The notes beneath the pieces are model-generated. The model searched no databases. It was not told the origin of the DNA and worked only from the letters and a program-made list of their open reading frames with translations. The translations under genes and the position numbers were made by a program. A DNA stretch of 64,000 nt from Ferranicluibacter rubi (GTDB taxonomy: Bacteria; Pseudomonadota; Alphaproteobacteria; Rhizobiales; Rhizobiaceae): positions 434,001-498,000 of the forward strand of contig NZ_JAANCM010000003.1 of NCBI RefSeq assembly GCF_011603255.1. Direction: 5' to 3'. Below are positions 23,753 to 60,748 of this stretch, one piece after another; positions within the stretch are counted from its first letter, which is position 1; each line of letters begins with the position of its first letter.

Positions 23753-25849
23753 TCAGGCAGCCCGGCGCGAGGCTGGCTGGTACCGCGCCGCGGCGCTCTC
23801 TTCGCCCAAATCGAACTGTGCGAGAAGCGTGTTCAGCGCGGCCGCTTCGCCGGCAAGGCCGTGGCTTGCCGCGGTCTGCTCCTCGACCATAGCGGCATTC
23901 TGCTGGGTGCCCTGGTCCATGGTGTTGACGGCAGTATTGATCTCCTGAAGTCCGGTCGATTGCTCGCGGCTTGCCGTAACGATCGCTGCGATATGCGCGT
24001 TGATCTCCTGCACCTGACCGGCGATCGCCTGAAGCGACTGCCCGGTTTCGCCAACCAGCGACACGCCTGCGCGCACCTGTCCGCTCGAGGTGTTGATCAG
24101 CGCCTTGATTTCCTTGGCGGCCTTTGCAGAGCGCTGTGCCAGTTCGCGCACTTCCTGCGCCACCACCGCAAAGCCCTTGCCCGCCTCGCCGGCACGCGCC
24201 GCCTCGACGCCTGCGTTGAGGGCAAGCAGGTTCGTCTGGAAGGCGATGTCGTCGATCACGCCGATGATGTTGCCGATCTCGTTGGAGGATGTCTCGATCC
24301 CCTGCATGGCGCTGACGGCCTTGCCGACGATCTCGCCGGAGGTTTCCGCACCGGCACGGGCGCGAGCGACGAGCTGGCCGACTTCCTCGGCACGACGCGC
24401 ACTGTCGCGCACCGTGGTGGTGATTTCTTCCAGCGCGGCCGCGGTTTCCTCGACGGAGGCGGCCTGCTGCTCCGTGCGACGGGCGAGATCGTCCGCGGCA
24501 TGGCGAATCTCGCTCGCACCGGCATCGATGGCGCGGGCATTGCTGCCCACGGCTCGCATCGCATCATGCAGCTTTGAGACGGCATGGTTGAAGTCGGCGC
24601 GGAGCCGGTCGAGATGGAGGACGAAGGGCGTGGAGATGCGATAACCGAGGTCACCGTCCGCAAGCCGGCCGAGCCCTGTGGCAAGCGCCTCGACGGCGTG
24701 CTGGATGTCCGCGGTCTCCTGGGCCTTCGTGGCCTCCCGCTCGCGCTGCTCGCGCGCCGATAGCGAACGCCCGCTTTCGGCTTCGGTTTCCAGGCGCGCC
24801 CGGTCGATGGCATTGGTGCGGAACACGGCGACGGCAGCAGCCATGGAACCGATCTGGTCGCGGCGCTCCTGTCCCGGAATGTCGGTCTTCAGATCGCCCG
24901 ATGCCAGCTCTTCCATGGCGCGGGTCATGTCGGTGACCGGACGGATGACGAGGCGGCTGAGAAGGCTCGCCAGGAAGACGATCATGGCGCCGACCGCAAG
25001 AAGCGTCGCGATGGTCGCGGCAATGCGGAAATGGTCGATGGCGGAATAAACCTGGTCGGCATCGACGGCAAAGCCGACATACCATTCGACCGTGGGAAGG
25101 CCGGCGACGGGCACGAAGCTCACGAGCATCGGCTTGCCGTTCGCTTCCGTCTCCATGATACCGCTGCCGATCGTGGGTGTCGCAGCCGGAAAGGCATCGG
25201 CAAGCGTCTTCGTCACCAGCTTGGCATCGGGATGCACGAGGATCTGGCCCGACTTGTTGACGAGGAAGGCGAAACCGCCAGCTCCGGCATCGATCGACTG
25301 GATCATCGAGACCAGCGTCTTCAGCGAGAAGTCGCTGCCGGCAACGCCGGTCAGCGCACCGTTCTTCATCACGGGCACAGCCGCACTGATGATCAGATCG
25401 CCGGTGGAAGCGTCGAAATAGGGGTCCGTGAGAACATCGCCCTTCGCCTTCACCGCATCCTGATACCAGGGACGCTGGCGCGGATCGTAACCGGCCGGCA
25501 GGTTCGTCACCGGCCATGTGGTAAAGGTGCCTGCCTCGTCGCCGATATAGGTGCTCATGAACTCCTTGACGAGAACATCGTTTTTCAGGACGGCGAGAAG
25601 AGCGGTCTTATCAGGGGCATTGGCGGCGGCATCGGCCACCATCGCCGTCAGGGTGACGCGGCCGTTCAGCCAGTTCGCCACGCTCTGTGCGGCCTGCTTT
25701 CCAGAGAAGGCGATATTCTCTTCGACGGCATGCGTCGTCGTGCTCCGCTGCAGCGTGTCGATGTAGAAGGAGAAGCCGGCAAAGGCGGCGGCAACGACGA
25801 CCGACGCGGCCACCAGAATGCGCGTCATCAAATTGGATGTCTTGGGCAC
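23753..25849 (-). CDS. Methyl-accepting chemotaxis protein with dCache sensor
   Basis: A 698-aa chemoreceptor. TM1 at residues ~10-30 is followed by a periplasmic double-Cache ligand-binding region (~35-285, with [13 protein letters not shown] and [21 protein letters not shown] typical of dCache_1), TM2 around 280-310, a HAMP domain ([18 protein letters not shown]), and a cytoplasmic signalling domain whose hairpin tip reads [24 protein letters not shown]. It lacks a CheR-tether pentapeptide at the C-terminus. Its upstream region contains a 14-bp perfect inverted repeat and a CtrA-type box. The ligand is unknown; dCache often binds amino acids or other small polar molecules. Confidence 0.92.
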
Positions 25850-33309: not shown

Positions 33310-33330
33310 TGATTAAAACTCTCTTAATCA
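33310..33330. promoter_or_regulatory. CtrA-type box inside a 7-bp palindrome
   Basis: TGATTAA-AACTCTC-TTAATCA. The arms are perfect and the core is TTAA-N7-TTAA (33313-33327), the CtrA spacing. It lies between the divergent lipoprotein (111 bp) and DUF4360-like gene (129 bp), so it could control either or both. Confidence 0.45.
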
Positions 33331-33455
33331 CGCCGCTCTACTTCTAACGCCTTCCGATGTGAATCGCAGCCGAACGGATTGCTCAGCGACGGTTCATATT
33401 GGCACATCTATTTTCCTGCCAGGGCTTGATGCTCACATATAAACGAGGAAGTTCA

Positions 33456-34046
33456 ATGAAGAGATTTGGTCTCCTGCTGGCGTCGCTGTTCATCTCGTCC
33501 GCTGCCTACGCCGACGACATTTCCCTCGGCGTACCCGGCTATGGCGGTAGCGGTTGCCCGTCGGACAGCGTCTCCGCCACGATCAGCCCGGACGGCAAGG
33601 CGCTGAGCCTGCTGTTCGACAACTACATCGTCCAGGCCGGCGGTGATACGGGCAAGAACATGGACCGCAAGACCTGCAACGTGGCCATTCCGGTTCACGT
33701 GCCCCAGGGCCGCAGCGTTTCGGTTCTCGCTGTCGATTATCGCGGCTTCAACCAGCTGCCGCGTGGCGCCCGCTCGCAGTTCAACGTCGAATACTTCTTC
33801 GCGGGAACGCGCGGACCGACCTTCGTCAAGACGTTCTCCGGCCCCAGCGAACAGGACTACCTGATCTCCAACAAGATCGTTGCAGATTCCATGATCTGGT
33901 CGGCCTGCGGTGAAGACGTCAACCTGCGGACCAACTCCAGCATCCGCGTGAACACGACGCGCGGCCAGGAAGCCATGGCGACCGTCGATACGCAGGACGT
34001 AAAGGCCGCCATCGTCTATCAGCTGCAGTGGAAGACCTGCCGCTAA
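33456..34046 (+). CDS. Secreted DUF4360-like protein
   Basis: A 196-aa exported protein with signal peptide MKRFGLLLASLFISSAAYA. The mature part starts DDISLGVPGYGGSGCPSDS and continues ATISPDGKALSLLFDNY, KTCNVAIPVHVPQG and VDYRGF, the pattern of the DUF4360 family of secreted beta-rich proteins. Four cysteines (GCPS, KTCN, SACG, KTCR) could form two disulfides. The ATG at 33456 has CGAGGAAG upstream. The next gene encodes a protein with a very similar module joined to a beta-barrel. Confidence 0.75.
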   Translation: MKRFGLLLASLFISSAAYADDISLGVPGYGGSGCPSDSVSATISPDGKALSLLFDNYIVQAGGDTGKNMDRKTCNVAIPVHVPQGRSVSVLAVDYRGFNQLPRGARSQFNVEYFFAGTRGPTFVKTFSGPSEQDYLISNKIVADSMIWSACGEDVNLRTNSSIRVNTTRGQEAMATVDTQDVKAAIVYQLQWKTCR

Positions 34047-34055
34047 CATGATCCG

Positions 34056-34085
34056 GCGCGGGTGGCAGGAGACTGCCGCCCGCGC
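34056..34085 (+). terminator. Hairpin between the two DUF4360-like genes
   Basis: A 13-bp stem GCGCGGGTGGCAG / CTGCCGCCCGCGC (one G-U pair) with a GAGA tetraloop, 10 bp after the stop codon. A terminator or attenuator that would lower expression of the following autotransporter relative to the secreted protein. Confidence 0.55.
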
Positions 34086-34132
34086 TGATTGCTCTTCTTG
34101 CCCGCCTGCCTCCCTGCCCGTGAGAACCGTCC

Positions 34133-35530
34133 ATGCGCCACAGCACATCGTTCGCCCTCTGTCTCCTGAGCATCGCGGCCACAACGCCCGGCCGGGCCGA
34201 TGCCGCAGACGGATGCGCGGACGGGACGTTCTCCAGCGTCACCTCGCCTGACGGCAATGCGACCAGCGTGCTCTTCGACGACTTTTCGGCCACCGCCGGC
34301 GGTGGTGCCGGCACATCGCGCGCGACCAGCACCTGCCAGCTGAACATCCCGGTGACCCGAGCTGATGGCTTCAGCGTCTACGGCGTCGATTATCGCGGAT
34401 TCGTAACGACGGAAGACGGACAGGCCGCGCAGATCGTCACCTTGCAGGACGGCCGCCAGGTTCTGAAGTACCAGGTTGCAGGACCACTGCAGGACGATGT
34501 CGCAACCGGCGGCAAGGTCGGCACGTCGGGCTCCGACACGCTCGGCCTGACGGTCGTCGTGGAAACGACGGCACCGATCGATCCCGACAATCCCGATGCC
34601 AGCCTGCTTCTCGACACGGTCGATATCACGCGCCTCGGCTTCACAACGCTCTCATCGGTCACGGCCTCGACGGACCAGCTGGCGCGCCAGCGACAGGCGA
34701 TTGCCGCAGAGCTCATCGGCACGGCGCAAGGCCTTCTCGGTGAGGGCGAACGCTTCGATGCGGGCAGCGCGATCAGCCTCTTCGGATCGTCCAGCGCGGC
34801 GGCCGGCTTCAAGGGCCGGTGGGAAGCCGGAAGCGGCATCACCGTCCTCGGCGGCGCGGCGATCGTCAATCCCGACGACGACAACGTCTCGGTCGATACG
34901 CTGGCGCTGCTTGCAGGCGCCGTCCGTTACACGACGCCGCAGGCGACGTGGCGCGCCTTCGGCGAAGTCGGCCTCTGGGGCTCGCCGAACGTCACGGCGG
35001 ATCTGTCGCGCCGCTATCTCAACGTCGACAATATCGTTTCCGCCGGCGGTACGGCCGATGGCTCGCTTCTCAGCTCCTACGGACGGATCGGCGCGGTTTT
35101 CGCGCCCGACCAGGCCAACGAGTTCGTGCTTTCGGCTCGCTTCACCAAGGCATGGCTCGACCTCGACGGCTACAGCGAGACGGCGACGGACAGAAACCTC
35201 TTCGCGGCCACCGTCCACGGGGGCACGTCGAGCGAGAACATCGTCAGCGCCGAACTTGCCTGGAGCCACCAGACCGAAGGCCGGCTGGACTACACGCTTT
35301 CCGGCGCCGTCGGCCGCATCTTCGCCGACGACAAGGCCGTTCGTGCTTCCGTCGATTGGGTCGGCGATGTCTCCGGCCGCGCTCGCGACCAGACCTTCGC
35401 CTCAGCCGGCAGCCGCATCGGCGTTCGGCTTGACGACGTCTGGCGCCTGGACACCTCAGTCGCCGCCACCTTCCGCCAGTACGACGATCCCGAGTGGAAC
35501 GTCGGCGCGCAACTGAAGGCCGCGTTCTAG
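34133..35530 (+). CDS. Autotransporter with DUF4360-like passenger and beta-barrel
   Basis: A 465-aa outer-membrane protein. Signal peptide MRHSTSFALCLLSIAATTPGRADA. Residues ~26-150 repeat the preceding protein's module: GCADGTFSSVTSPDGNATSVLFDDF, CQLNIPVTRADGF and VYGVDYRGF. A short linker with a helical QLARQRQAIAAELIG leads into a ~270-residue barrel of alternating strands ending AQLKAAF, a terminal Phe as in outer-membrane barrels. The barrel resembles the autotransporter C-terminal domain. The pairing suggests the free protein and the displayed module interact or act in parallel; that is inference. Confidence 0.7.
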   Translation: MRHSTSFALCLLSIAATTPGRADAADGCADGTFSSVTSPDGNATSVLFDDFSATAGGGAGTSRATSTCQLNIPVTRADGFSVYGVDYRGFVTTEDGQAAQIVTLQDGRQVLKYQVAGPLQDDVATGGKVGTSGSDTLGLTVVVETTAPIDPDNPDASLLLDTVDITRLGFTTLSSVTASTDQLARQRQAIAAELIGTAQGLLGEGERFDAGSAISLFGSSSAAAGFKGRWEAGSGITVLGGAAIVNPDDDNVSVDTLALLAGAVRYTTPQATWRAFGEVGLWGSPNVTADLSRRYLNVDNIVSAGGTADGSLLSSYGRIGAVFAPDQANEFVLSARFTKAWLDLDGYSETATDRNLFAATVHGGTSSENIVSAELAWSHQTEGRLDYTLSGAVGRIFADDKAVRASVDWVGDVSGRARDQTFASAGSRIGVRLDDVWRLDTSVAATFRQYDDPEWNVGAQLKAAF

Positions 35531-46835: not shown

Positions 46836-48494
46836 TCAGAAGAAGAAATCGCCCTTGTCGAGATGAGCGAGCTTCACGCCCTTGAGCAGGATGCTGTCGC
46901 CGCCTGTGGCATCGATCATCACATCGTTGCCGACCTGCCGGGCATGGTTCGCCATCAGGTCCTTGAAGCTGGTGATCGCCTTCACGCCGGTCAGGTCGAG
47001 AATATCGTGGGCTTTGCCGCTGGCGACAAAATCCGTGATGACGTCGCGGCCGTCGCCGGTGGCGAACACGAACTGGTCGATGCCGGCACCGCCCGTCAGC
47101 GTATCCGCGCCGCCATGGCCCCAGATCATATCGTTGCCGGCCTTGCCGTCGATCCGGTTGTCGGCACCATTGCCGTGGATCTGGTTCGCCAGCGCATTGC
47201 CGGTCGCGTTCACCGCCGCCGTCCCGCCCAGCGTGAGGAACTCAAAATTGTCGGCCAGCGCGTAGCTGACGCTGGAGATGACGAGATCGTTGCCGGCATT
47301 CTTGGCTTCGACCAGCAGAGTGCGCGCGTTGTCGATGACATACGTGTCGTGGCCCGCACCACCCGCGACCTTGCCCATGACGGTACCGCCACGACCATCG
47401 AAATAGTCGTTGCCGCCGCCCAGGAGCACATCGCCCTTGATCGTGCCGCCGTTCGTCAGCGACTGCTGGCCATCGCCGCCCTTGAACGCAAGACCGGACA
47501 CCGCGGAAAGAACGCCGCTATTGTTGAAGCTGGCGTGATCCGCCTTGGTGAAATCGACAGCGCTGCCCTTGGAGGCGGAAATCGTGCCACTATTGGCGCC
47601 GCGCGCCGCGTCACCGACGACGGCGATCCCGATGGCACCGCTCATCGTGCCCAGATTGTTGACGATCACGCCACTGGCGGTGACGTTGACAGCCGTGCCA
47701 CCGACCGCGATCGTCTTGCTGTTCGTCACGGTGCCGTTCGCGCCGGAAAGCGCGACACCATCGACGCTTGCCTGCAGAGCCCCGGAGTTCGTGACGACGG
47801 CATTCTTGCCCTTTGCGACGATAGCGCTGGCGCCGCTGCCGACCGTGCCGTTATTGGTGATGATCTCTGAGACACCGCTTGCCACGATGCCATTGCCGCG
47901 CGCGCCGATCGATCCATTGTTGGTCACGGTCGAGGCCATTCCGTCAATCACAATGCCGGCGGCAGTGGCAGACGAGATGTCCTTGTTGTTCGTCATGGCC
48001 ACGCGGTCGCCGGAAAGCTTCACGGCATCCGTCTGTCCGGCCATCCGGCCGTTGTTGACGACCATGGCCGCGGCACCCGCCACAGAGACAGCGCTGCCGG
48101 CCGCCGACGAAATCGTGCCCTCGTTGGCGACATTCGCTTTGCTGCCGATCACGTTGACGCCGGCCTGCTTGCCGGAAATACCACCGCGATTGACGATATC
48201 CATGCCGACAGCCGTCGCCGATATGCCGAAGGCCCCCGCGACGATCGATCCGGTCTCCGAGACGACGACGGACCCCTTGAGCTCTCCCGCATTGGCCGCG
48301 CCGAACGTCACGCCGGACACACCGGCCGAGATCGTCCCATCAACCACGACGGCGCGCTCCTTTGCGAGACCGGACGCAACGATGCCGCTTTCGGTAACCG
48401 AAATGGTCACGTCTTTGACGAGCACCAGCGTGGTGTCGGCTTCGGTGAAGCTGACACTGGTCTTCGTGTTGTTCGTAAGGAACGTCATGGCCAT
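46836..48494 (-). CDS. Secreted beta-solenoid protein with C-terminal RTX calcium-binding region
   Basis: A 552-aa protein with no N-terminal signal peptide. Residues ~20-360 are built from irregular ~20-residue repeats with an N(N/S)G core (VTNNGSI, ITNNGTV, VTNSGAL, VNNGRM), expected to form a beta-solenoid as in adhesins. The C-terminal third has RTX-like nonapeptides (GNGADNRIDGKAGNDMIWGHGGADTLTGGAGID) and a final hydrophobic motif, as in type I secretion substrates. Start: ATG 48494 or 48488. It lies near the cellulose genes and may be a surface adhesin. No type I secretion genes are in the window. Confidence 0.8.
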   Translation of the reverse strand: MAMTFLTNNTKTSVSFTEADTTLVLVKDVTISVTESGIVASGLAKERAVVVDGTISAGVSGVTFGAANAGELKGSVVVSETGSIVAGAFGISATAVGMDIVNRGGISGKQAGVNVIGSKANVANEGTISSAAGSAVSVAGAAAMVVNNGRMAGQTDAVKLSGDRVAMTNNKDISSATAAGIVIDGMASTVTNNGSIGARGNGIVASGVSEIITNNGTVGSGASAIVAKGKNAVVTNSGALQASVDGVALSGANGTVTNSKTIAVGGTAVNVTASGVIVNNLGTMSGAIGIAVVGDAARGANSGTISASKGSAVDFTKADHASFNNSGVLSAVSGLAFKGGDGQQSLTNGGTIKGDVLLGGGNDYFDGRGGTVMGKVAGGAGHDTYVIDNARTLLVEAKNAGNDLVISSVSYALADNFEFLTLGGTAAVNATGNALANQIHGNGADNRIDGKAGNDMIWGHGGADTLTGGAGIDQFVFATGDGRDVITDFVASGKAHDILDLTGVKAITSFKDLMANHARQVGNDVMIDATGGDSILLKGVKLAHLDKGDFFF

Positions 48495-48695
48495 GGGCGG
48501 CACGCTATCACTGCTGTGGGTTGATTGCCTCTTACACGATAAGCATGCGGAAATCGACTAGCGATACACCCGACTGGCCTCTGATGCCGTCGGTTCTGCG
48601 ATAAATACGCAACATGCTTAACGCACGAAGGACCCTCTCTTAGCCAAACGCTGACGTCGAGGGGAACTTACGACTCGCGGACGTCTTTACGCGGT

Positions 48696-49041: not shown

Positions 49042-49368
49042 CGCATCGTCATTCCCATGGGCCCATGGGCGACATTTCTCAAGCCGAGCGGCTCACGAGG
49101 TGGTGTCCGTAATCCATAAAGCAGACACGGTGAACCGTCGCCATCCTGCCGTATATCCCGACAGTGATTCGCGACGGAGGATGCTTCCGCGGTGCTTTTG
49201 GAAACTTCAGTCGGCACGAAACGTATCGGCCAAGCCACGGAAACACCAAAAACGGTCAACTGCAGCGCACAAATAGGAAAGTGTTAGCGAAGATTAACTG
49301 TACGTTAACCATGCGAGCGAGAAATGAGGTGGAAGAACCCTGATTCCATCACTGGATGCACGCCGCCC
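49042..49368. other. Control region of the cellulose operon
   Basis: About 330 bp without a convincing gene. It holds a full CtrA-type TTAA-N7-TTAAC site at 49294-49309, close to the bcsN start. No other repeat or RNA element is clear. Confidence 0.5.
49294..49309 (+). promoter_or_regulatory. CtrA-type box upstream of bcsN
   Basis: TTAA-CTGTACG-TTAAC, an exact match to the CtrA consensus TTAA-N7-TTAAC. It lies 60 bp before the chosen bcsN start, in the right place to control transcription of the cellulose operon. Confidence 0.55.
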
Positions 49369-50523
49369 ATGTTTCATACAGCTCTCGCAATTGCAGGAAG
49401 AACCGCCATGCAGGGCGCGTTTCTGGCCTTGGGCGCCTCGGCACTTTCCGGTTGCACGCAGACGGGCGGCCTGAAACTGACCTCGGCGCCGACCGAAGTC
49501 GCGGCCGAAAAGGCGCTGGCTTTTCCGCCGCCCGGCGGCCCGGCGATCGTCAGCGTGATCGAGCGCAACTTCTCCAACGCCGTCCAGCAGGACATCATCC
49601 TGAGCACCGATGCCCGTAGTCGCGGCCAGAATTACATTCAGGTGCGCTATTTCGGCCCCGCGTCCACGCCGTTCGCCGGCGCGTCGCGCCTGTCGACCGG
49701 GCTGATGACAACGGCCCAGGCTGTGGGCGAGATGCGGTCGGAGTTCCCGACCATCCGCATGAGCATTTCCCCGAGCTTCGTTCAGAACAATTACGGCGCT
49801 TTCGCCTATGCTTACGGGACCAATCCAGGTTCCGGCGATGCATGCCTCTACGGTTGGCAGCAAATCAAGGCACCTGATAATTACGTGCGCACGTTCCACT
49901 ATCTCGGCAGAATCCAGACCCGCGTCCGCTTCTGCCAGACCGGTGCGTCTCGCGACGAACTGCTGTCGATGATGTACCATTATACGCTGACAGGCGCCTT
50001 CGACAGCGTCGGTTGGAATCCCTATGGCAACGTTCCGCCTCTCGACCCCACGGTCGGGCAGCTTGGCCGGCCGATCTATGCTGCAGGCGCCGGCGCCCGG
50101 CTTCAGCCCCCGACACCCGCACCTGTCGCTCCGGTCCGCCCGGCCATTCGGAGCCTCGAGAGCCAGAACACGCGACCTGCGGCCCCGCGCGTCGAGACCG
50201 TCAGGCCGATCGTTCCCGCCGTCGCCATCCCCGCGCCGAACATGGTCACGCGCTCGCCTCTGGCAAGGACGGGCCAGCCCACCGGGGCTGATATCGAACC
50301 ACAGACGCTGCCGGGCCCCTCGCGCCTGCCGGGTCCGACCACGACACCCGCGACGGCGCCTGCACCCGGATCACAAACCCCGCAGGCACCGAGACCGACG
50401 AGCCAGTTGCAGCAGCAGGGCCTGACCCGCGTATCGAGCGCTTCCCCGTTGCCGGCCCGACCCATCATTCCGGCCGTTCCCTGCACGATCTCCCCCACCA
50501 GCTCCTGTGCGGGAGACATGTAA
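49369..50523 (+). CDS. bcsN: Cellulose biosynthesis protein BcsN
   Basis: A 384-aa lipoprotein that heads the cellulose operon, as in Rhizobiaceae class III bcs operons. The signal ends in a lipobox ALSGC; the following ~200 residues (AIVSVIERNFSNAVQQDIILSTDARSRGQNYIQVRYFGP in short blocks; ACLYGWQQI; RTRVRFCQTGASRDELL) match BcsN. The C-terminal ~140 residues are Pro/Ala/Thr-rich. Possible starts are ATG 49324, 49369 and 49408; the last has AGGAAG upstream, while 49369 adds the basic residue a signal needs. Its exact role in cellulose export is unknown. Confidence 0.8.
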   Translation: MFHTALAIAGRTAMQGAFLALGASALSGCTQTGGLKLTSAPTEVAAEKALAFPPPGGPAIVSVIERNFSNAVQQDIILSTDARSRGQNYIQVRYFGPASTPFAGASRLSTGLMTTAQAVGEMRSEFPTIRMSISPSFVQNNYGAFAYAYGTNPGSGDACLYGWQQIKAPDNYVRTFHYLGRIQTRVRFCQTGASRDELLSMMYHYTLTGAFDSVGWNPYGNVPPLDPTVGQLGRPIYAAGAGARLQPPTPAPVAPVRPAIRSLESQNTRPAAPRVETVRPIVPAVAIPAPNMVTRSPLARTGQPTGADIEPQTLPGPSRLPGPTTTPATAPAPGSQTPQAPRPTSQLQQQGLTRVSSASPLPARPIIPAVPCTISPTSSCAGDM

Positions 50524-50569
50524 ACCATGAGCCATATCCAGCTGCATTCGGGACAAGGAAACTAGGATC

Positions 50570-52765
50570 ATGGTCAAGGCGCTCATCGTCATTGCATGGA
50601 TCTGCATGTCGATCGTCATCGTGGCGATCACGACGCTGCCGGTCAGCCTCCAGACGCATCTGGTTGCCGCCTTCCTCTGCATGGCGCTGCTTGCCGTGCT
50701 GAAGGTGCTGAAGGCGGAAGGCAACTGGCGCCTGATCGGGCTCGGCTTCGGCACGGCCATCGTTCTGCGCTATGTCTACTGGCGCACCACCAGCACGCTG
50801 CCGCCGGTCAACCAGCTCGAAAACTTCATTCCCGGCTTCCTGCTGTATCTCGCTGAAATGTACAGCGTCGCGATGCTGGCGCTCAGCCTCTTCATCGTCT
50901 CCATGCCGCTTCCCCCGAACCGGCCCCGCCCGGGCTCGGCGGATTATGCGCCATCCGTCGACGTCTTCATTCCGACCTACAACGAAGACGCGGATATGCT
51001 GGCCAACACGCTCGCCGCCGCCAAGAACATGGACTACCCGCCGGAAAAGCTGACCGTCTGGCTTCTGGACGATGGCGGCACCCTGCAGAAGCGGAACGCG
51101 GCCAGCATTCCGGACGCGCAAGCCGCCCAGCGCCGCCACGAGGAGCTGAAGGAACTCTGCCGCAACCTCGATGCCAATTATCTCACGCGCGACCGCAACG
51201 AACATGCCAAGGCCGGCAATCTGAACAATGGCATGCGCCAGTCCCAAGGCGACCTCATCACCGTCTTCGACGCCGACCATGCGCCGGCGCGCGACTTCCT
51301 GCGCGAGACTGTGGGGTATTTCGAGGAGGATCCGCGCCTCTTCCTCGTGCAAACGCCGCACTTCTTCCTCAATCCCGACCCGATCGAGCGCAACCTGAAA
51401 ACCTTCAACAAGATGCCGAGCGAGAACGAGATGTTCTATGGCATCATCCAGCGCGGTCTCGACAAGTGGAACGCCGCGTTCTTCTGCGGTTCGGCAGCGG
51501 TGCTCAACCGGCGCGCGCTCGAAGACACCAACGGCTTCAGCGGCATCAGCATCACCGAGGACTGCGAAACGGCGCTTGCGCTCCACGCCCGCGGCTGGAA
51601 CAGCGTCTATGTGGACAAGCCGCTGATCGCCGGGCTCCAGCCCGCCACCTTCGCAAGCTTCATCGGCCAGCGCAGCCGCTGGGCGCAGGGCATGATGCAG
51701 ATCCTCATGTTCCGCATGCCGCTGTTCAAGCGCGGTCTGAGCATGCCGCAACGTCTTTGCTACATGTCCTCGACGCTCTTCTGGCTGTTCCCGTTCCCCC
51801 GCACGGTCTTCCTGTTTGCGCCACTGTTCTACATCTTCTTCGATCTGGAGATCTTCGTCGGCTCCGGCGGCGAGTTCCTGGCCTATACGACCACCTACAT
51901 GCTCGTGAACCTGCTCATGCAGAACTATCTCTACGGCCGCTTCCGCTGGCCTTGGATCTCAGAACTTTATGAATATGTGCAGACGGTGCACCTGCTGCCC
52001 GCCGTCATTTCGGTCATCTTCAACCCGTCGAAGCCCACGTTCAAGGTGACGGCAAAGGACGAGTCGATCAGCGACAACCGTCTTTCGGAGATTAGCCGGC
52101 CGTTCTTCGTCATCTTCGGCGTGCTGCTCATCGCCACCGTCATGTCGTTCTACAAGATCTATGCCGAGCCCTACAAATCCGACGTGACGCTGGTCGTCGC
52201 CGGCTGGAACCTGTTGAACCTCCTCTTCGCCGGCTGCGCGCTGGGCGTGGTGTCGGAACGGCGCGAAAAGTCGTCGTCCCGGCGGGTCAACGTCAAACGG
52301 CGGTGCGAATTCCGCGTGGGCGACCAGTGGTTCCCGGGCGTCATCGAAAACGTCTCGGTCAACGGTCTTCTCGTCCACGTCTACGATCGCTCCATGCAGC
52401 CGCTGACGGTGGGGGCTATGGAGGAGATCCGCGTCGAGACGTTCAGCCCGGGCGCGCCGTCCTCCATGCCGGTCAAGATCGTGCGTAGTGGCCGGGGCGA
52501 CGGCTTCGTGCTCGTCGGCTGCACGTTCGCGCCGCGCGAACCGCAGGAACGGCGGCTGCTTGCCGATATCATCTTTGCGAATTCTGCACAGTGGACGGAG
52601 TTCCAGATGGGCCGGCGGCGCAATCCCGGCCTTATCCGTGGCACGATCAGCTTCTTCGCCATTGCGCTCTACCAGACCAATCGCGGCCTCTTCTACTTCT
52701 TCCGCAGCCTTGGTGGCGCGAAGGAAGCAGCGGCCCCCGTCAAGAAGGAGGCAGCGAGACCATGA
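50570..52765 (+). CDS. bcsA: Cellulose synthase catalytic subunit BcsA
   Basis: A 731-aa inner-membrane synthase that polymerises UDP-glucose into beta-1,4-glucan and threads it across the membrane. GT2 motifs are complete: DDGG near residue 166, DAD near 234, TED near 328 and QRSRWAQG near 366. Several transmembrane helices lie before (~1-110) and after (~385-560) the catalytic domain. The C-terminal PilZ domain (SSRRVNVKRR and NVSVNG) binds cyclic di-GMP, which activates the enzyme. It lies 46 bp after bcsN, and its stop overlaps the bcsB start. Confidence 0.95.
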   Translation: MVKALIVIAWICMSIVIVAITTLPVSLQTHLVAAFLCMALLAVLKVLKAEGNWRLIGLGFGTAIVLRYVYWRTTSTLPPVNQLENFIPGFLLYLAEMYSVAMLALSLFIVSMPLPPNRPRPGSADYAPSVDVFIPTYNEDADMLANTLAAAKNMDYPPEKLTVWLLDDGGTLQKRNAASIPDAQAAQRRHEELKELCRNLDANYLTRDRNEHAKAGNLNNGMRQSQGDLITVFDADHAPARDFLRETVGYFEEDPRLFLVQTPHFFLNPDPIERNLKTFNKMPSENEMFYGIIQRGLDKWNAAFFCGSAAVLNRRALEDTNGFSGISITEDCETALALHARGWNSVYVDKPLIAGLQPATFASFIGQRSRWAQGMMQILMFRMPLFKRGLSMPQRLCYMSSTLFWLFPFPRTVFLFAPLFYIFFDLEIFVGSGGEFLAYTTTYMLVNLLMQNYLYGRFRWPWISELYEYVQTVHLLPAVISVIFNPSKPTFKVTAKDESISDNRLSEISRPFFVIFGVLLIATVMSFYKIYAEPYKSDVTLVVAGWNLLNLLFAGCALGVVSERREKSSSRRVNVKRRCEFRVGDQWFPGVIENVSVNGLLVHVYDRSMQPLTVGAMEEIRVETFSPGAPSSMPVKIVRSGRGDGFVLVGCTFAPREPQERRLLADIIFANSAQWTEFQMGRRRNPGLIRGTISFFAIALYQTNRGLFYFFRSLGGAKEAAAPVKKEAARP

Positions 52766-55254
52766 AGCCCTTCGTTATCGCCTGCACGCTCGCCCTCCTC
52801 GCACCGTCGCAGCTCCTCGCTCAGACCACTCCCTTCGACATGTCTCGCGAGCGGCCGGCAACCCCGGCTCAGCCGGCACCGTCGCCCGCCCCGGGCCAGC
52901 CGCCGGCGCAAGTTCCGGCGCAAGCACAGCCGCCCGCAGCGGCACCCGAGGCACGCCCACAGCAACCAGCAACGCAGCCGGCGCCCTTCCAGGTCTCGCC
53001 CGGAGCGCCCACACGCCCGGCGCCCCAGCCAACACGGCCAACGCCGGCCACACCGACGGCTCCCCCGCAGGCCGAGGCGAAACCGCGTGTCCAGACAGCT
53101 TCCGACACGGACGCCAGCCGCCGCTACATCCTGCCGTTCGGCAAGCTCAGCCTCTCCGGCGAGGCCGACCGGCGGACATGGACGATCTATGTGACGCCCG
53201 AACAGGCGAGCGCTGCCACGGCCATCACCATCGGCTACCAGAACTCCATCGTCGTCGCACCGGAGGCCTCCACCTTCTCTGTCGAGCTCAACGGCAGCGT
53301 CATCGGCCAGGTGCCGGTCGCCTCGGCCGATGCGGTCAGCGATCTCGTGCTGCCGCTTCCGGCCGGCGCGCTGCAGGCCGGCGCGAACGTCGTGCGCCTC
53401 GCCACGCAACAGCGCCACCGCACCGATTGCAGCATTCAGTCGACCTATGATCTCTGGACCAATATCGACCCGAGCCGGACATATCTGACCTTCAACGCAC
53501 CGGTCGGCAATCGCTTCTCCAGCATCGACGATATCCCGGCCGTTGGCCTCGACGCCACGGGTGCGACGACGATCGACATCATTGCGCCGGCACTGACGAA
53601 CCCGAGCCGGTCGAACATGCTGCTGCGTCTCGCACAGGCTCTGGCCTTGCGCGTGCAGATGCCGAACCAGACCGTTGCCTTCCACGCGACCATGCCCACG
53701 GCACCGGTCGCAGGCACCCTGACCGTGCTGGTCGGCACGCAGCTTGAGATCGAGGGCCTGATCCCGGCTTTGCCGGCAGGCACCGCGGTCGGTCCGACCG
53801 TAACGTTTGCGCCTGCCGCAATGCCCGGCTTGAGCACCCTTGTCGTTACCGGCCCGACGGCCGAAGCTCTCCGACAGGCGGTGGAAACCCTGGCAAGCCC
53901 TCTCGACACGGCGCCGGGCACCTCGCGCACCACCTTCTCCACCAAGGCGTGGAACACGCCGGATGCGCCGATCCTCGTCGGCGAGACGCGCATGCCGCTC
54001 TCGCAACTCGGCATCACCACCAGCGAGTTCTCGGGTCGCCGGTTCCGTACGGAGTTCATGCTTGGCGTTCCCGCGGACTTCTACGCCAGCGCCTATGGCG
54101 ATGCCGTGATCCTGCTCGATGCCGGCTATGCCGCGTCGGTCCTGCCGGGCAGCCGCATCGACGTCTATGTCAATGGCAATATCGCCACCACCACGCCACT
54201 CTCCACGGCCGGTGGCGGCATCCTCAGCCATCTCCCGATCACCGTGACGCTGCGCCACTTCGTGCCCGGCGTGAACCGGATCTCGATCGAAGCCGTGCTG
54301 CTGACGGAAGACGACGACGCTTGCGCCACAGGCACGCCGGCGCAGACCACGCCGCGCTTCGCGCTCTTCGACACCACCGAATTCCACATGCCGGATTTCG
54401 CGCGGATCGACAGCAGCCCCAGCCTTGCGGCCACATCCTCGACGGGCCAGCCCTATCGTCGGGCCGAACAGCCGACGGCGCTCTATCTCGACCGCCTCGA
54501 TCCCGAGACGCTGTCGGCCGCAGCCACCCTCGTCGGGCGCCTCGCCGTTGCCGCGGGCAACCCGCTCGCGCTGGAAACCGTAGCCTCCCCGGCGGCTCTC
54601 GGCGATCGCAACGCCTTGATCGTCGGCACGATGTCGCAGCTTCCCCCGCCCTTGCTGACCCAGATGCAGATCGGTGCGGCGCCCGCCAACTGGGGCACAC
54701 ACCATGCGGGCGGGCCGGCAAACGGCGACAGCGGCACCCTGTTCGAGGAATGGCGCCACAAGGTTTCCGGTGGCAGCTGGCTCGGTCAGGGGTCTCGTCT
54801 CGAAGCCTGGCTGAAGAGCGATCTCGACCTGTCGATGGACTCGCTACGCTTCCTGCCCGGCGAGGAAGAGAATTTCTCTCCGGCAGACGACGTCAGTTTC
54901 ATGATCGCCCAGGGCCGCAGCCCGTCGGGCGCCGGCACATGGACGCTTGCAACCGGGCCAACGCCGGCAAGTCTTCAGACCGGCATGAGCGCCATGGTGC
55001 AAGAGGCGCGCTGGAATGGCATCGAAGGCCGGATCACGACCTTCGAGGAGGCGACCGGAAACGTGGCGATGGTACCGGTGCACGACCTGCATCTGAACCC
55101 GACGCAACCCTTCTCGATCGCCAACTGGCGCCTGATCGCGGCAAACTGGCTGTCGACCAACATCCTCTTCTTCGCCGTGATGTTCATCGCCGGCTTCGCC
55201 CTTCTCGGCATCATCACCACGCTGATGCTGCGCCTCCTGGGGCGCAGCCGATGA
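52762..55254 (+). CDS. bcsB: Cellulose synthase regulatory subunit BcsB
   Basis: An 830-aa periplasmic partner of BcsA. Signal peptide MKPFVIACTLALLAPSQLLA; a long Pro/Gln/Ala-rich linker (residues ~30-115); two carbohydrate-binding plus flavodoxin-like units (SFSVELNGSVIGQVPV, RTDCSIQSTYDLWTNIDPSRTY, VLPGSRIDVYVNGN); and a single C-terminal transmembrane helix (ILFFAVMFIAGFALLGIITTLML in parts) that anchors it beside BcsA. The ATG at 52762 overlaps the bcsA stop by 4 bp. The unusually long proline-rich linker is a notable detail. Confidence 0.93.
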   Translation: MKPFVIACTLALLAPSQLLAQTTPFDMSRERPATPAQPAPSPAPGQPPAQVPAQAQPPAAAPEARPQQPATQPAPFQVSPGAPTRPAPQPTRPTPATPTAPPQAEAKPRVQTASDTDASRRYILPFGKLSLSGEADRRTWTIYVTPEQASAATAITIGYQNSIVVAPEASTFSVELNGSVIGQVPVASADAVSDLVLPLPAGALQAGANVVRLATQQRHRTDCSIQSTYDLWTNIDPSRTYLTFNAPVGNRFSSIDDIPAVGLDATGATTIDIIAPALTNPSRSNMLLRLAQALALRVQMPNQTVAFHATMPTAPVAGTLTVLVGTQLEIEGLIPALPAGTAVGPTVTFAPAAMPGLSTLVVTGPTAEALRQAVETLASPLDTAPGTSRTTFSTKAWNTPDAPILVGETRMPLSQLGITTSEFSGRRFRTEFMLGVPADFYASAYGDAVILLDAGYAASVLPGSRIDVYVNGNIATTTPLSTAGGGILSHLPITVTLRHFVPGVNRISIEAVLLTEDDDACATGTPAQTTPRFALFDTTEFHMPDFARIDSSPSLAATSSTGQPYRRAEQPTALYLDRLDPETLSAAATLVGRLAVAAGNPLALETVASPAALGDRNALIVGTMSQLPPPLLTQMQIGAAPANWGTHHAGGPANGDSGTLFEEWRHKVSGGSWLGQGSRLEAWLKSDLDLSMDSLRFLPGEEENFSPADDVSFMIAQGRSPSGAGTWTLATGPTPASLQTGMSAMVQEARWNGIEGRITTFEEATGNVAMVPVHDLHLNPTQPFSIANWRLIAANWLSTNILFFAVMFIAGFALLGIITTLMLRLLGRSR

Positions 55255-55330
55255 GGACGACAAGCGGCTCCGCATCGACGCACGCCCCCCGGGCGTTCTC
55301 TCTTCCTCGGACAGTTCACCGGGAGTTCCC

Positions 55331-57715
55331 ATGACAACCGCCCGCATCCTGCTTTTCTCGACGCTGGCCGCAGCAACCGCAACGGCGATCTATTACGGCC
55401 CCGCTCTGCTGCCCGAGAGAGAACTGACGACCGGCACGATCGCCGCCCCGCCCGCCGTCGACGAGAAAGGCAACCGGCTGAGCCTGGTGCCGCCGAGCCC
55501 GACCGTGCGCCGTGGCGACCGGCGACCGGCCGACCTATCGCAGGCGCTTCCGCCTGCCGTTCCCGCCGCAGATACTGAGACTGCGACCGAGGCCACCACA
55601 CCGGATATGTCCGGGGAAGCGGCAGCGGAGCCGGAGCTGCAAGGCGCCGAACCCGTGATCAAGGCGCAGTTGCAATCGCAACCGCCTGTGCCCGCACAAA
55701 CCCAACCCACTGCGCCCGCGGCCCCTGCAGCATCCGCGCCGCCGAAGCCGACCGTGGATGAAGGGGCGCTCCGCTACTTCGCGCGTCTGGGCGACACCGT
55801 GCGCCTACAGGCCGAGATCGCACGCCTGCGCACGCTCTATCCCGACTGGGAACCTCCGGCCGATCCGCTCGCCGTGCCGCAGAATGTCGATACGCAGCTG
55901 GAAGCCATGTGGGCGCTTTATGGACAGACGCGCTATGCAGAGGTGCGCAAGGCCATCACCGAGAGACAGGCGCGCGAACCCGGCTGGCAGCCGCCGGAAA
56001 ATCTTCTGTCGATGCTGGCGCTCGGTGAAGCCCGTCAGCGTCTCGTCAACGCCTCCAACCTCCAGCAGTTTCCGACCGTCATCGACGTCGCCGCGGAAAC
56101 GCCGCAGCTTCTCGTCTGCAGCGAAATCGACATTCTCTGGCGCCTCGCGGAGGCCTTCGCAAAAACCGACCGGCAGCAGCGGTCGTTGGATGCCTATACC
56201 TATATCCTCTCCAGCTGCACCGAGGGCCCCGACCGGCTGGCGACCTTGCAGAAGGCTGCATCCCTGCTGCCGCGCCCGATGGTCGAGCAGTTGCTGACGC
56301 AGGAAAAGACCGATCCGTCCGGCAAGGGCGAATTCGAGCCCGTGAAGGACGATCTGGCCCGCCAGTTCGTCGCCGCCGCCGGCGAAGATCCAAAGCTCAC
56401 CGTTCCCCCGGCCTATCTGACCCGGCTGGAGCGCGTCTCCGAAGTGGGTGGTAAAGCCTCCGACGCGCTGCTGCTTGGCTGGTACTACGTGCGCCGCAAC
56501 GGTGCCGAACAGGCGGAAACCTGGTTCCGGCGGGCACGGACGGCAGAAGATTCCGCAGCAGCGTCGCAGGGCCTCGCCCTGACGCTGATCGCACGCAACA
56601 ATCCGGGTGAGGCTGAAGCCACGCTCTATCCCTGGCGGGATACGTCCGACGACACGCGCGCTACCTATCTCGCCGCCGCCTCGAACCTCCTGGCCCTCGA
56701 CCCGCCCATCGTGATCGCAGCGGACGTGCTGCAACGCATGGCGCAGGAAGCGATGCGCTCCCGCAATGCCGACGTCGCCCAGCAGTTCGGCTGGTACGCC
56801 CGCGCCTTCGAACAGCCGCAGCTCGCGCTGCAATGGTTCTCGACCTCGCTGACCTGGAAGCCCGATACCGAAGCCTCTGCCTATGGGCTTGCGATCACCG
56901 CAAATCAGCTTGGCATGACGAACGATGTCGCGCGAATCCAGAGACAATGGGCCGGACGTTCCCCGCGGATCGCCATGCTCGGCGAAGAAGAAGACCCGAA
57001 CCAGCCTCAGCGCATGGCGCAAGCCGGAACGGTGGCCGATGAACCCGTTCGCGAGACATCGCGGTCACCCGCGCGGCAGCCCGCGCGGACCGTATCTGCG
57101 CAGACGAGCGCCGAGCCGGCAGCGCCGGTGCGCCAACGCACCGCTCGTGCTGTCCCTGCCAATCGTGGCGCGGCGCCGACATCCGGCCGAGGCTGCAGCA
57201 CCTTCGGCGACGCTTCCGGACTTTCGGCCGGTGAAGCGCTGCGGCGCGGCTGGTGCCTGATGGAGTTGAACCGGCCACTCGAAGCCGTTCACCATTTCGA
57301 CGCAGCGATCCGCACCGGCGACACGCGCATCCGCAGCGAAGCCGCTTACGGCCAGAGCCTTGCCTATCTGCGTCAGGGCCTGACCGACAAAGCTTCCGTT
57401 GCCGCGACGCGTGGACCGATGGATGCGCAGAAGGCGACGGAACTGCAGATCGCCCTCCTCTCCAACCGCGCTTTGGTTGCTTTCGACCAGAAGCGGTTTT
57501 CAGAGGCCCTGATCCTCCTCGACCGCCGCGCGCAACTGGCACCCGAACGCATCGATCTGATGGTGCTGCGCGGTTACGCCCTTCTCGGGCTGAACCGCTA
57601 TGGCCAAGCGATCCGGACCTTCGAAACACTGGCGGCGACCGGCGATCAGGAGGCCATTCGCGGTCTTGCCAACGCCCGCGCGGCAACACCGTCCGCCATC
57701 GCGACGAGGAACTGA
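55331..57715 (+). CDS. TPR-rich periplasmic protein of the cellulose operon (BcsK-like)
   Basis: A 794-aa protein. An N-terminal signal or anchor helix (ARILLFSTLAAATATAIYYGPALL) is followed by a Pro/Ala-rich segment to residue ~140 and then many degenerate tetratricopeptide repeats, clearest at the end (SEAAYGQSLAYLRQGL, NRALVAFDQKRFSEALILLDR, LRGYALLGLNRYGQAIRTFETLA). Class III bcs operons carry a TPR gene, bcsK, at this position; the assignment is by context. It could align the glucan with peptidoglycan or an outer-membrane exit. No bcsZ endoglucanase lies between it and bcsB. Confidence 0.75.
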   Translation: MTTARILLFSTLAAATATAIYYGPALLPERELTTGTIAAPPAVDEKGNRLSLVPPSPTVRRGDRRPADLSQALPPAVPAADTETATEATTPDMSGEAAAEPELQGAEPVIKAQLQSQPPVPAQTQPTAPAAPAASAPPKPTVDEGALRYFARLGDTVRLQAEIARLRTLYPDWEPPADPLAVPQNVDTQLEAMWALYGQTRYAEVRKAITERQAREPGWQPPENLLSMLALGEARQRLVNASNLQQFPTVIDVAAETPQLLVCSEIDILWRLAEAFAKTDRQQRSLDAYTYILSSCTEGPDRLATLQKAASLLPRPMVEQLLTQEKTDPSGKGEFEPVKDDLARQFVAAAGEDPKLTVPPAYLTRLERVSEVGGKASDALLLGWYYVRRNGAEQAETWFRRARTAEDSAAASQGLALTLIARNNPGEAEATLYPWRDTSDDTRATYLAAASNLLALDPPIVIAADVLQRMAQEAMRSRNADVAQQFGWYARAFEQPQLALQWFSTSLTWKPDTEASAYGLAITANQLGMTNDVARIQRQWAGRSPRIAMLGEEEDPNQPQRMAQAGTVADEPVRETSRSPARQPARTVSAQTSAEPAAPVRQRTARAVPANRGAAPTSGRGCSTFGDASGLSAGEALRRGWCLMELNRPLEAVHHFDAAIRTGDTRIRSEAAYGQSLAYLRQGLTDKASVAATRGPMDAQKATELQIALLSNRALVAFDQKRFSEALILLDRRAQLAPERIDLMVLRGYALLGLNRYGQAIRTFETLAATGDQEAIRGLANARAATPSAIATRN

Positions 57716-59231: not shown

Positions 59232-59343
59232 CGAGAAAACCACGCCGCCCTTCCAAACTGTACTACACAGGCAGCAAAGCAGCATGATCGTGTAGGAGGC
59301 CCGATTGGCGGTTGCCGCCCGGACAAAAGCCCGGCATATGTAA

Positions 59344-59361
59344 CTGTCTCGTGACGGTCGA
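59344..59361 (+). promoter_or_regulatory. Pho-box-like direct repeat upstream of ugpB
   Basis: CTGTCTC-GTGA-CGGTCGA has the two 7-mer, 4-bp-spacer layout of PhoB sites (CTGTCAT repeats 11 bp apart), with mismatches in the second half. It ends 64 bp upstream of ugpB. The ugp operons of Sinorhizobium and E. coli are known to respond to phosphate through PhoB. Confidence 0.35.
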
Positions 59362-59425
59362 GGAGGATCGTCATGCTGATATCGCGGAGCGGCACGTCCT
59401 GCTTCGCCAAAACGGGAGGACGTTC

Positions 59426-60748
59426 ATGTTCAAGACAATCCTGAAGGCATCGACCCTGAAGGCGACAGCAGCCGCGCTTGCTTTGTCGGCTACCGGACCT
59501 TTGGCCGCGTCTGCGGCGACCGATCTGCAATGGTGGCATGCGATGACCGGTGCGAACAACGAGGTCGTCAACCAGCTCGCCAAGGAATTCAACGAAAGCC
59601 AGAGCGAATACACCATCACGCCCGTGTTCAAGGGCACCTATCCGGAAACGCTGAACGCCGGCATCGCTGCCTTTCGCTCCAAGCAGCCGCCGGCGATCAT
59701 TCAGGTGTTCGACGCTGGTAGCGGTGTGATGATGGGGGCCGAGGGTGCGATCATGCCCGCGGCAGACGTGCTGCAGAAGGGTGGCTTCACCTTCGACAAG
59801 TCGCAATATCTCGCCGGCATCGCGGCCTATTATTCCAAGCCGGACGGCACGATGTTGTCCTTCCCCTACAACTCGTCCTCGCCGATCCTTTACTACAACA
59901 AGGATATCTTCGCGAAGGCTGGGCTTGACGCCGAAGCGCCACCAAAGACATGGCCTGAAGTGTTCGAGGCCGCAAAGAAGATCAAGGCGAGCGGTGCCGC
60001 ATCCTGTGGCTTCACATCGACCTGGCTCACCTGGATCCAGACCGAAAATCTGGCTGCCTGGAACAACGTCGCCTATGGCACCAACGAGAACGGGCTCGGC
60101 GGCAGCGACGTGAAGCTTGAGTTCAACGCCCCGCTCTTCGTTGAGCATTTCCAGGCCATTGCCGATCTCGCAAAAGACGGCACCTTCCGCTATGGGGGCC
60201 GCACATCCGAAGCCAAGCAGCTCTTCATGTCGGGCGAATGCGCGATCCTGACGGAATCCTCCGGTGGTCTCGGTGATATCGTCAAGTCGGGCGTGAAATA
60301 CGGCATCGGCCAGCTGCCCTATTACGAGGGCCATGGACCGCAGAACACGATCCCCGGCGGCGCGAGCCTCTGGGTCTTCGGCGGCAAGAGCGATGCGGAA
60401 TATGCGGGCATCGCCCAGTTCTTCAATTTCCTGTCTCAGACGAAGACCCAGGCACGTCTGCATCAGGTCTCGGGTTATATGCCGGTGACCAATGCTGCCT
60501 ATGAGGAAACCAAGAAGTCCGGCTTCTACGACAAGAACCCCGGCCGCGAGACGCCGATCCTGCAGATGATGGGCAAGGCGCCGACCGAGAACTCCAAAGG
60601 TGTCCGCCTCGTCAACCTGCCGCAGGTCCGCGACATCATGAACGAGGAGTTCGAATCGATGCTCGCCGGCAAGCAGGATGCGAAGGCCGCCCTCGACAAG
60701 GCTGTCGAGCGGGGCAATGCGGCGATTGCCGAAGCCATCGGCAACTGA
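59426..60748 (+). CDS. ugpB: Glycerol-3-phosphate ABC transporter binding protein UgpB
   Basis: A 440-aa periplasmic binding protein for sn-glycerol-3-phosphate and glycerophosphodiesters. Signal peptide to about LAASA (residue 30). The mature start TDLQWWHAMTGANNEVVNQLAKEFN is the UgpB signature, with FPYNSSSPILYYNKD, GAASCGFTSTWLTWIQTENL and GGASLWVFGGK further on. The ATG at 59426 has GGGAGGA upstream. It is the first gene of ugpBAEC, with a 14-bp hairpin before ugpA. Confidence 0.93.
   Translation: MFKTILKASTLKATAAALALSATGPLAASAATDLQWWHAMTGANNEVVNQLAKEFNESQSEYTITPVFKGTYPETLNAGIAAFRSKQPPAIIQVFDAGSGVMMGAEGAIMPAADVLQKGGFTFDKSQYLAGIAAYYSKPDGTMLSFPYNSSSPILYYNKDIFAKAGLDAEAPPKTWPEVFEAAKKIKASGAASCGFTSTWLTWIQTENLAAWNNVAYGTNENGLGGSDVKLEFNAPLFVEHFQAIADLAKDGTFRYGGRTSEAKQLFMSGECAILTESSGGLGDIVKSGVKYGIGQLPYYEGHGPQNTIPGGASLWVFGGKSDAEYAGIAQFFNFLSQTKTQARLHQVSGYMPVTNAAYEETKKSGFYDKNPGRETPILQMMGKAPTENSKGVRLVNLPQVRDIMNEEFESMLAGKQDAKAALDKAVERGNAAIAEAIGN

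What the first reader, a model, noticed from the sequence alone, without database searches (positions are those of the whole stretch)
33456..35530. A DUF4360-like secreted protein beside an autotransporter carrying the same module
The two adjacent genes encode proteins whose N-terminal modules align by eye (SPDG-A-SLLFDNY against SPDG-A-SVLFDDF; IPV...VDYRGF in both). The first ends after the module; the second joins it to a ~270-residue beta-barrel ending in Phe. A free secreted copy next to a surface-anchored copy suggests a two-part surface system such as a receptor and its ligand, an immunity-like pair or a matrix anchor. I know of no described system of this form. The hairpin between the genes and the CtrA-type palindrome upstream suggest differential and cell-cycle-linked expression.
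Basis: partly seen in the sequence, partly recalled or inferred. Interest (0 to 1): 0.75.

Follow-up and report, generated by a model that had tools for sequence, protein, structure and literature searches.

The report
Free protein paired with surface-anchored twin
Some soil bacteria of the Rhizobium group carry two neighbouring genes, one for a free secreted-type protein and one for a related protein built onto an outer-membrane anchor, and the two were found together in every carrier examined, which suggests an undescribed two-part surface system whose job is not yet known.

Summary

The genes are tightly linked. All 16 loci found by a P2 scan have P1 directly upstream. Every alphaproteobacterial genome or plasmid found with P1 also has P2, though P1 is frameshifted in one. 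Solo DUF4360 genes occur on Nostoc and Streptomyces plasmids. P1 and P2 form separate clades that diverge in parallel. An exact CtrA-type site lies about 145 bp upstream of P1 in 15 of 23 loci, and a hairpin stronger than shuffles separates the genes in 17 of 20. P1 is more constrained and more codon-biased than P2.

Best reading: P2 displays a DUF4360 sandwich on the cell surface, and P1 is its more abundant soluble partner in a surface or matrix assembly. That P1 binds P2 or crosses the outer membrane is inferred. My literature searches found no description of this pair. New variant built from known parts.

The parts
33313..33327 (.). CtrA-type site TTAA-N7-TTAA, 143 bp upstream of the P1 start codon
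   Evidence: present in 11 of 17 loci, in L032 and L059, and in L033 and L060 but not L058 and L062: 15 of 23
33381..33396 (+). Promoter-region block GCTCAGNNANGGTTCA, similar in Rhizobium-type and Shinella loci; role unknown
   Evidence: alignment; two exact copies in the genome, the other inside an ORF
33456..34046 (+). P1: soluble DUF4360 protein, 196 aa, signal-peptide-like N-terminus, four conserved Cys, no lipobox-like Cys (by eye)
34053..34088 (+). Intergenic GC-rich hairpin (attenuator- or terminator-like, 7 T in the 14 nt after it)
34133..35530 (+). P2: DUF4360 autotransporter, 465 aa
34208..34645 (+). P2 passenger: DUF4360 beta-sandwich, residues 26-171, one of the two Cys pairs kept (C28, C68)
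34649..34735 (+). P2 alpha-helix, residues 173-201, expected inside the barrel pore
34769..35527 (+). P2 12-stranded translocator barrel, residues 213-465, terminal Phe

Best explanation
A two-gene surface system. P2 is a type Va autotransporter that anchors in the outer membrane and displays a compact DUF4360 beta-sandwich on the cell surface. P1 is the untethered, probably more strongly expressed version of the same sandwich. The two act together: P1 associates with the P2 passenger and builds or decorates a surface layer, adhesive or extracellular matrix contact, with P2 as its cell-bound attachment point. Transcription starts from a promoter carrying a CtrA-type site upstream of P1. The hairpin after P1 keeps P2 at a lower dose. 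Supported by computation: module homology, folds, barrel type, linkage, conserved promoter site and hairpin, stronger constraint and codon bias of P1. Inferred: surface display, P1 crossing the outer membrane, P1-P2 contact, the adhesive or matrix role, CtrA binding, co-transcription, and that the hairpin lowers P2 expression.
Confidence: 0.45

Rival explanations
1. P1 is a periplasmic helper of P2: it binds the passenger or barrel before translocation (escort or quality control) and never leaves the cell.
For: Signal-peptide-like N-terminus and no visible outer-membrane exit route. P1 is encoded first and has higher codon bias. Close linkage.
Against: Solo P1-like genes without a P2 match exist on Nostoc and Streptomyces plasmids and DUF4360 proteins in Bdellovibrio (PMC10792529), so the fold does not need an autotransporter client. 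Passengers such as that of EstA are not known to need a homologous escort (recalled).
Confidence: 0.2
2. Two paralogous effectors from a tandem duplication that bind the same kind of external target (glycan, plant, fungal or bacterial surface) independently, one released and one displayed, without contacting each other.
For: Tandem DUF4360 genes without a barrel also occur (G1151; a further tandem copy in the Bauldia loci). Fungal members are secreted and change in expression in a fruiting-body mutant, five up and one down (PMC10949477, passage); one is in a table of genes that respond to mechanical damage (PMC4704728, passage).
Against: Both genes are kept side by side in all carriers seen, at differing genomic places, which points to joint function.
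Confidence: 0.25
3. An immunity- or recognition-type pair in which P1 neutralises or blocks the P2 passenger (self versus non-self).
For: Adjacent homologous genes, with the displayed partner evolving faster.
Against: P1 is identical in three species of the genus and nearly so in others, and P2 is under purifying selection too: dN/dS at most 0.28 even in the passenger. No toxin domain was found by Pfam.
Confidence: 0.04

Closest known systems
DUF4360 family (PF14273); Bdellovibrio bacteriovorus Bd1399 (PDB 8OKH)
   Different: Bd1399 is a free protein of a predator and no barrel is described with it. P2 fuses the module to an autotransporter and lacks the second Cys pair.
Type Va autotransporters with a compact passenger, best match EstA of Pseudomonas aeruginosa (3KVN)
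   Same: Signal-peptide-like N-terminus, small passenger joined directly to a pore helix, 12-strand barrel, terminal Phe.
   Different: EstA carries a GDSL-type esterase (recalled). P2 carries a DUF4360 sandwich and has a free homologue next door.
Curli CsgA/CsgB (recalled analogue)
   Same: Two homologous neighbours, one an abundant free subunit and one the cell-bound nucleator.
   Different: CsgA and CsgB are amyloid repeats exported by CsgG. Here a globular sandwich is anchored through its own barrel. No homology is claimed.
Two-partner secretion (type Vb)
   Same: Two adjacent genes, one with an outer-membrane barrel.
   Different: TpsB has POTRA domains and a 16-strand barrel and secretes TpsA (recalled). 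P2 has a 12-strand barrel with its own passenger, and no POTRA match was found.

Membership tests
DUF4360 (PF14273), P1 | Pfam score above the gathering cut-off over the full profile | tested here: met
   166.8 bits against 27; profile 3-178 of 178
DUF4360 (PF14273), P1 | Elongated beta-sandwich of the 8OKH type | tested here: met
DUF4360 (PF14273), P1 | Two conserved Cys pairs | tested here: met
   Cys at 34, 74, 151, 195, present in 20 of 20 P1 orthologues; disulfides themselves not shown
DUF4360 (PF14273), P2 passenger | Pfam score above the gathering cut-off | tested here: met
   52.8 bits against 27 over 26-103; a PF14273 match at E 1 or better in 17 of 17 orthologues scanned
DUF4360 (PF14273), P2 passenger | Second half of the domain and second Cys pair | tested here: inconclusive
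   Profile alignment covers the second half and the model has strands through 171, but the second Cys pair is absent in 20 of 20; the passenger was not folded or searched alone
Type Va autotransporter, P2 | 12-strand barrel with N-terminal pore helix | tested here: met
Type Va autotransporter, P2 | N-terminal signal peptide, passenger and barrel in one chain, terminal aromatic residue | tested here: met
   Sequence by eye, no signal-peptide program run; terminal Phe in 19 of 20 orthologues, Leu in one
Type Va autotransporter, P2 | Match to the Pfam or NCBIfam autotransporter barrel profiles | tested here: inconclusive
   No match for the window protein; among 17 orthologues only weak barrel hits (PorV 4, OprB 2, OMP_b-brl 1). 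The profiles may not reach this clade
Type Va autotransporter, P2 | Passenger exposed at the cell surface | not testable with these tools
   Needs protease shaving or antibody labelling
Two-partner secretion (type Vb) | POTRA domains and 16-strand TpsB barrel | tested here: not met
   12 strands in the model and an N-terminal DUF4360 module in place of POTRA
CtrA regulon | Exact TTAA-N7-TTAA site upstream, conserved between species | tested here: met
   15 of 23 loci at near-constant distance; absent as an exact site in 8
CtrA regulon | CtrA binding and CtrA-dependent expression | not testable with these tools
   Needs ChIP or a CtrA-depletion transcriptome

The most novel reading that the evidence does not exclude
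P2 is a membrane-anchored nucleator and P1 the major subunit of a DUF4360 surface assembly that grows outward by edge-to-edge sheet contacts of the kind seen in the Bd1399 crystal dimer. It would be a curli-like division of labour built from a globular sandwich and an autotransporter, switched with the CtrA motile-to-sessile programme.
Probability: 0.15. Interest if true: 0.78.

Novelty: new variant of a known kind. Interest (0 to 1): 0.5.

Why it matters
DUF4360 proteins are secreted by plant- and mushroom-associated fungi and occur in Bdellovibrio, Nostoc and Streptomyces, and none of the passages I saw assigns them a molecular function. A two-gene set in Rhizobiaceae, with one copy fixed to an outer-membrane barrel, gives a tractable handle: the displayed and free copies can be deleted or labelled separately, and the tethered copy shows where the fold is meant to work. 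If the two bind each other it would be an undescribed way to decorate the rhizobial surface, possibly under cell-cycle control.

Tried and rejected

Limits of the counts: the loci were found with P2, so they show that P2 implies P1; the reverse rests and 35/36. Eight of the loci are the same contigs as genomes (judged by equal contig length). The genome samples are draws from larger groups and missed carriers found elsewhere (Pararhizobium, Mesorhizobium). Two of the five plasmid records have the same length (348572) and may be one plasmid. The 20-locus set has one row per genome; L060, L062 and L033 (G005) were left out of it and checked for the CtrA site. The P1 start in L048 is unresolved: a 177-residue stretch was used, and its CtrA distance assumes an aligned start. 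In one search the L060 site prints at -86 because I gave a start 57 bases too far upstream; against the annotated start it is at -143. In one search the P2 of L032 was displaced by an antisense ORF, so the P1/P2 cluster shows 20 of 21 sources. The hairpin shuffles use a coarser scan; L032 was no stronger than shuffles (17 of 50 as low), L054 was weak, L058 has no intergenic space; the other 17 had at most 3 of 50 shuffles as low. The reference set is six genes judged by eye to be EF-Tu and ribosomal proteins, and the same weights were used for other species. An earlier version with a mixed reference set gave P1 above P2 in 14 of 15.

Full report
WHAT IS THERE. Two genes lie head to tail on the + strand. 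P1 (33456-34046) encodes 196 residues with a signal-peptide-like N-terminus; P2 (34133-35530) encodes 465 residues. P1 matches DUF4360 (PF14273) along its whole length, E 5.4e-49. P2 matches it at its N-terminus, E 5.4e-14. BLASTP of P1 against P2 gives E 1e-14. In the window's genome a search with the first 148 residues of P1 returns only these two genes.

LINKAGE. PF14273 was searched in whole genomes. In the genus 7 of 7 genomes have exactly two matches, side by side. In the family 7 of 297 genomes (2 of 109 genera) match, each with the adjacent pair; 5 of these 7 are. In the order 3 of 397 match, one being the window's own. The two others (Bauldia MAGs by the records) have a P1-like gene, P1 and P2 in a row, plus further solo copies elsewhere; in one of them the P2 module was below the Pfam search's threshold and was found by BLAST. 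In the class sample 1 of 385 matches, the window's own genome. In the phylum sample 2 of 398 match: the own genome, and G1151, which has two tandem solo genes and no fused ORF in the stretch listed. A scan of named genomes with the P2 alignment returned 16 loci: Rhizobium-type, Shinella, Bauldia and one contig labelled Klebsiella. All 16 have P1 directly upstream on the same strand. Among plasmid records, P1 finds 14 and P2 finds 5; the 5 are the alphaproteobacterial ones, and the other 9 (Nostoc 4, Streptomyces or Streptantibioticus 5) have P1-like genes only. In one of the five, Rhizobium sp. 32-5/1, P1 matches in two different frames, so it is frameshifted or mis-sequenced, while P2 is open. 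Flanking genes differ between the three genera whose annotation I read, and the pair is the only cluster that spans the loci. The pair thus behaves as a unit, on large contigs and on megaplasmids.

HISTORY. In a tree of 47 DUF4360 modules the 20 P1 and 20 P2 sequences each need a single change of label, with support 100/99 (the program warns of long branches). P1 and P2 distances correlate over 190 pairs (r 0.88). P2 is on average 2.3 times more diverged (0.484 against 0.211). One old split followed by co-inheritance is the simplest reading. Within the genus P1 has lower dN/dS than whole P2, and lower than its passenger, in 15 of 15 pairs; the barrel alone is lower than P1 in 2 of 15. P1's dS is 0.40 to 0.77 of P2's in the same 15 pairs. 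Codon bias of P1 exceeds that of P2 in 19 of 20 loci, and P1 ranks above all 22 window genes compared. These fit a more highly expressed P1.

CONTROL REGION. TTAA-N7-TTAA, a published CtrA-binding motif (PMC11527210, passages), lies at 33313-33327. It occurs 142-149 bp upstream of P1 in 11 of 17 loci, also in L032 and L059, and in L033 and L060 but not in L058 and L062: 15 of 23. It is absent as an exact site in the Shinella curvata group (three loci), L054, the two Bauldia loci, L058 and L062. The window has 4 exact sites against 0.03 in shuffles. But the genome has 40 against 18 for the reversed pattern, so a single site would mean little; the constant position across species is the argument, and part of that may be shared ancestry of the promoter. 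Between the genes 18 of 20 loci have a predicted hairpin of -17 kcal/mol or stronger. Against 50 shuffles of each intergenic stretch, 17 hold up (at most 3 of 50 as low), L032 does not, L054 is weak and L058 has no gap. The hairpin sequences differ between groups. This fits partial termination or mRNA stabilisation after P1, but a strong T-run follows the stem in few loci.

MECHANISM. Steps supported here: homology, folds, anchor type, pairing, conserved control signals. Steps inferred: display of the P2 passenger outside the cell, P1 reaching the same place, and P1-P2 contact. The crystal dimer of Bd1399, whose authors call its physiological relevance unclear, shows that DUF4360 sandwiches can join edge to edge into one sheet. 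Unequal expression of a free copy and an anchored copy of one fold is the layout expected of a surface assembly with an anchor or nucleator. S. meliloti CtrA directly activates chemoreceptor and pilus genes (PMC4433202, passages), and another CtrA-type site in this window lies just before the cellulose gene bcsN, so a role in attachment or matrix is plausible. The main weakness is the missing outer-membrane exit for P1; the periplasmic-helper rival remains open.

KNOWN OR NEW. Each part belongs to a known family or fold. I found no description of a DUF4360 autotransporter or of the free-plus-anchored pair in the searches; the library holds only open-licence PMC papers. I rate it a new variant of a known kind.

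Noticed in passing
window 26058, 49294, 59216: Three further exact TTAA-N7-TTAA sites: near the start of a dCache chemoreceptor (23753-25849, -), just before the cellulose gene bcsN (49324-50523), and before a solute-binding protein (59312-60748). Functions from Pfam.
   Followed up: partly
window 49324-57715: Cellulose synthesis cluster (BcsN, a PilZ-bearing cellulose synthase, a TPR protein) with an RTX-repeat protein encoded nearby at 46836-48503 on the other strand.
   Followed up: no
Tandem DUF4360 genes may be a wider habit; Bd2850/Bd2851 have consecutive locus numbers too.
   Followed up: partly
L037 9707-10717, L038 8227-9099, L039, L040, L041: Bauldia-type genomes have a second P1-like gene upstream of P1 and further solo DUF4360 genes elsewhere; the L039 module falls with the P2 side of the tree on a long branch.
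   Followed up: partly
L062 5258-5844: In Rhizobium sp. 32-5/1 P1 matches in two overlapping pieces in different frames, so the gene is frameshifted or mis-sequenced; P2 beside it is open.
   Followed up: partly
window 33381-33396: Block GCTCAGNNANGGTTCA between the CtrA site and P1 is similar from Rhizobium-type to Shinella loci but has only one other exact copy in the genome.
   Followed up: partly
L054: A contig labelled Klebsiella pneumoniae MAG carries a clear alphaproteobacterial-type P1/P2 pair (68% and 39% identity); the label looks wrong.
   Followed up: no
L061 4899-5507: A Nostoc plasmid carries a solo DUF4360 gene 43% identical to P1, next to a class A beta-lactamase gene as annotated.
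   Followed up: no
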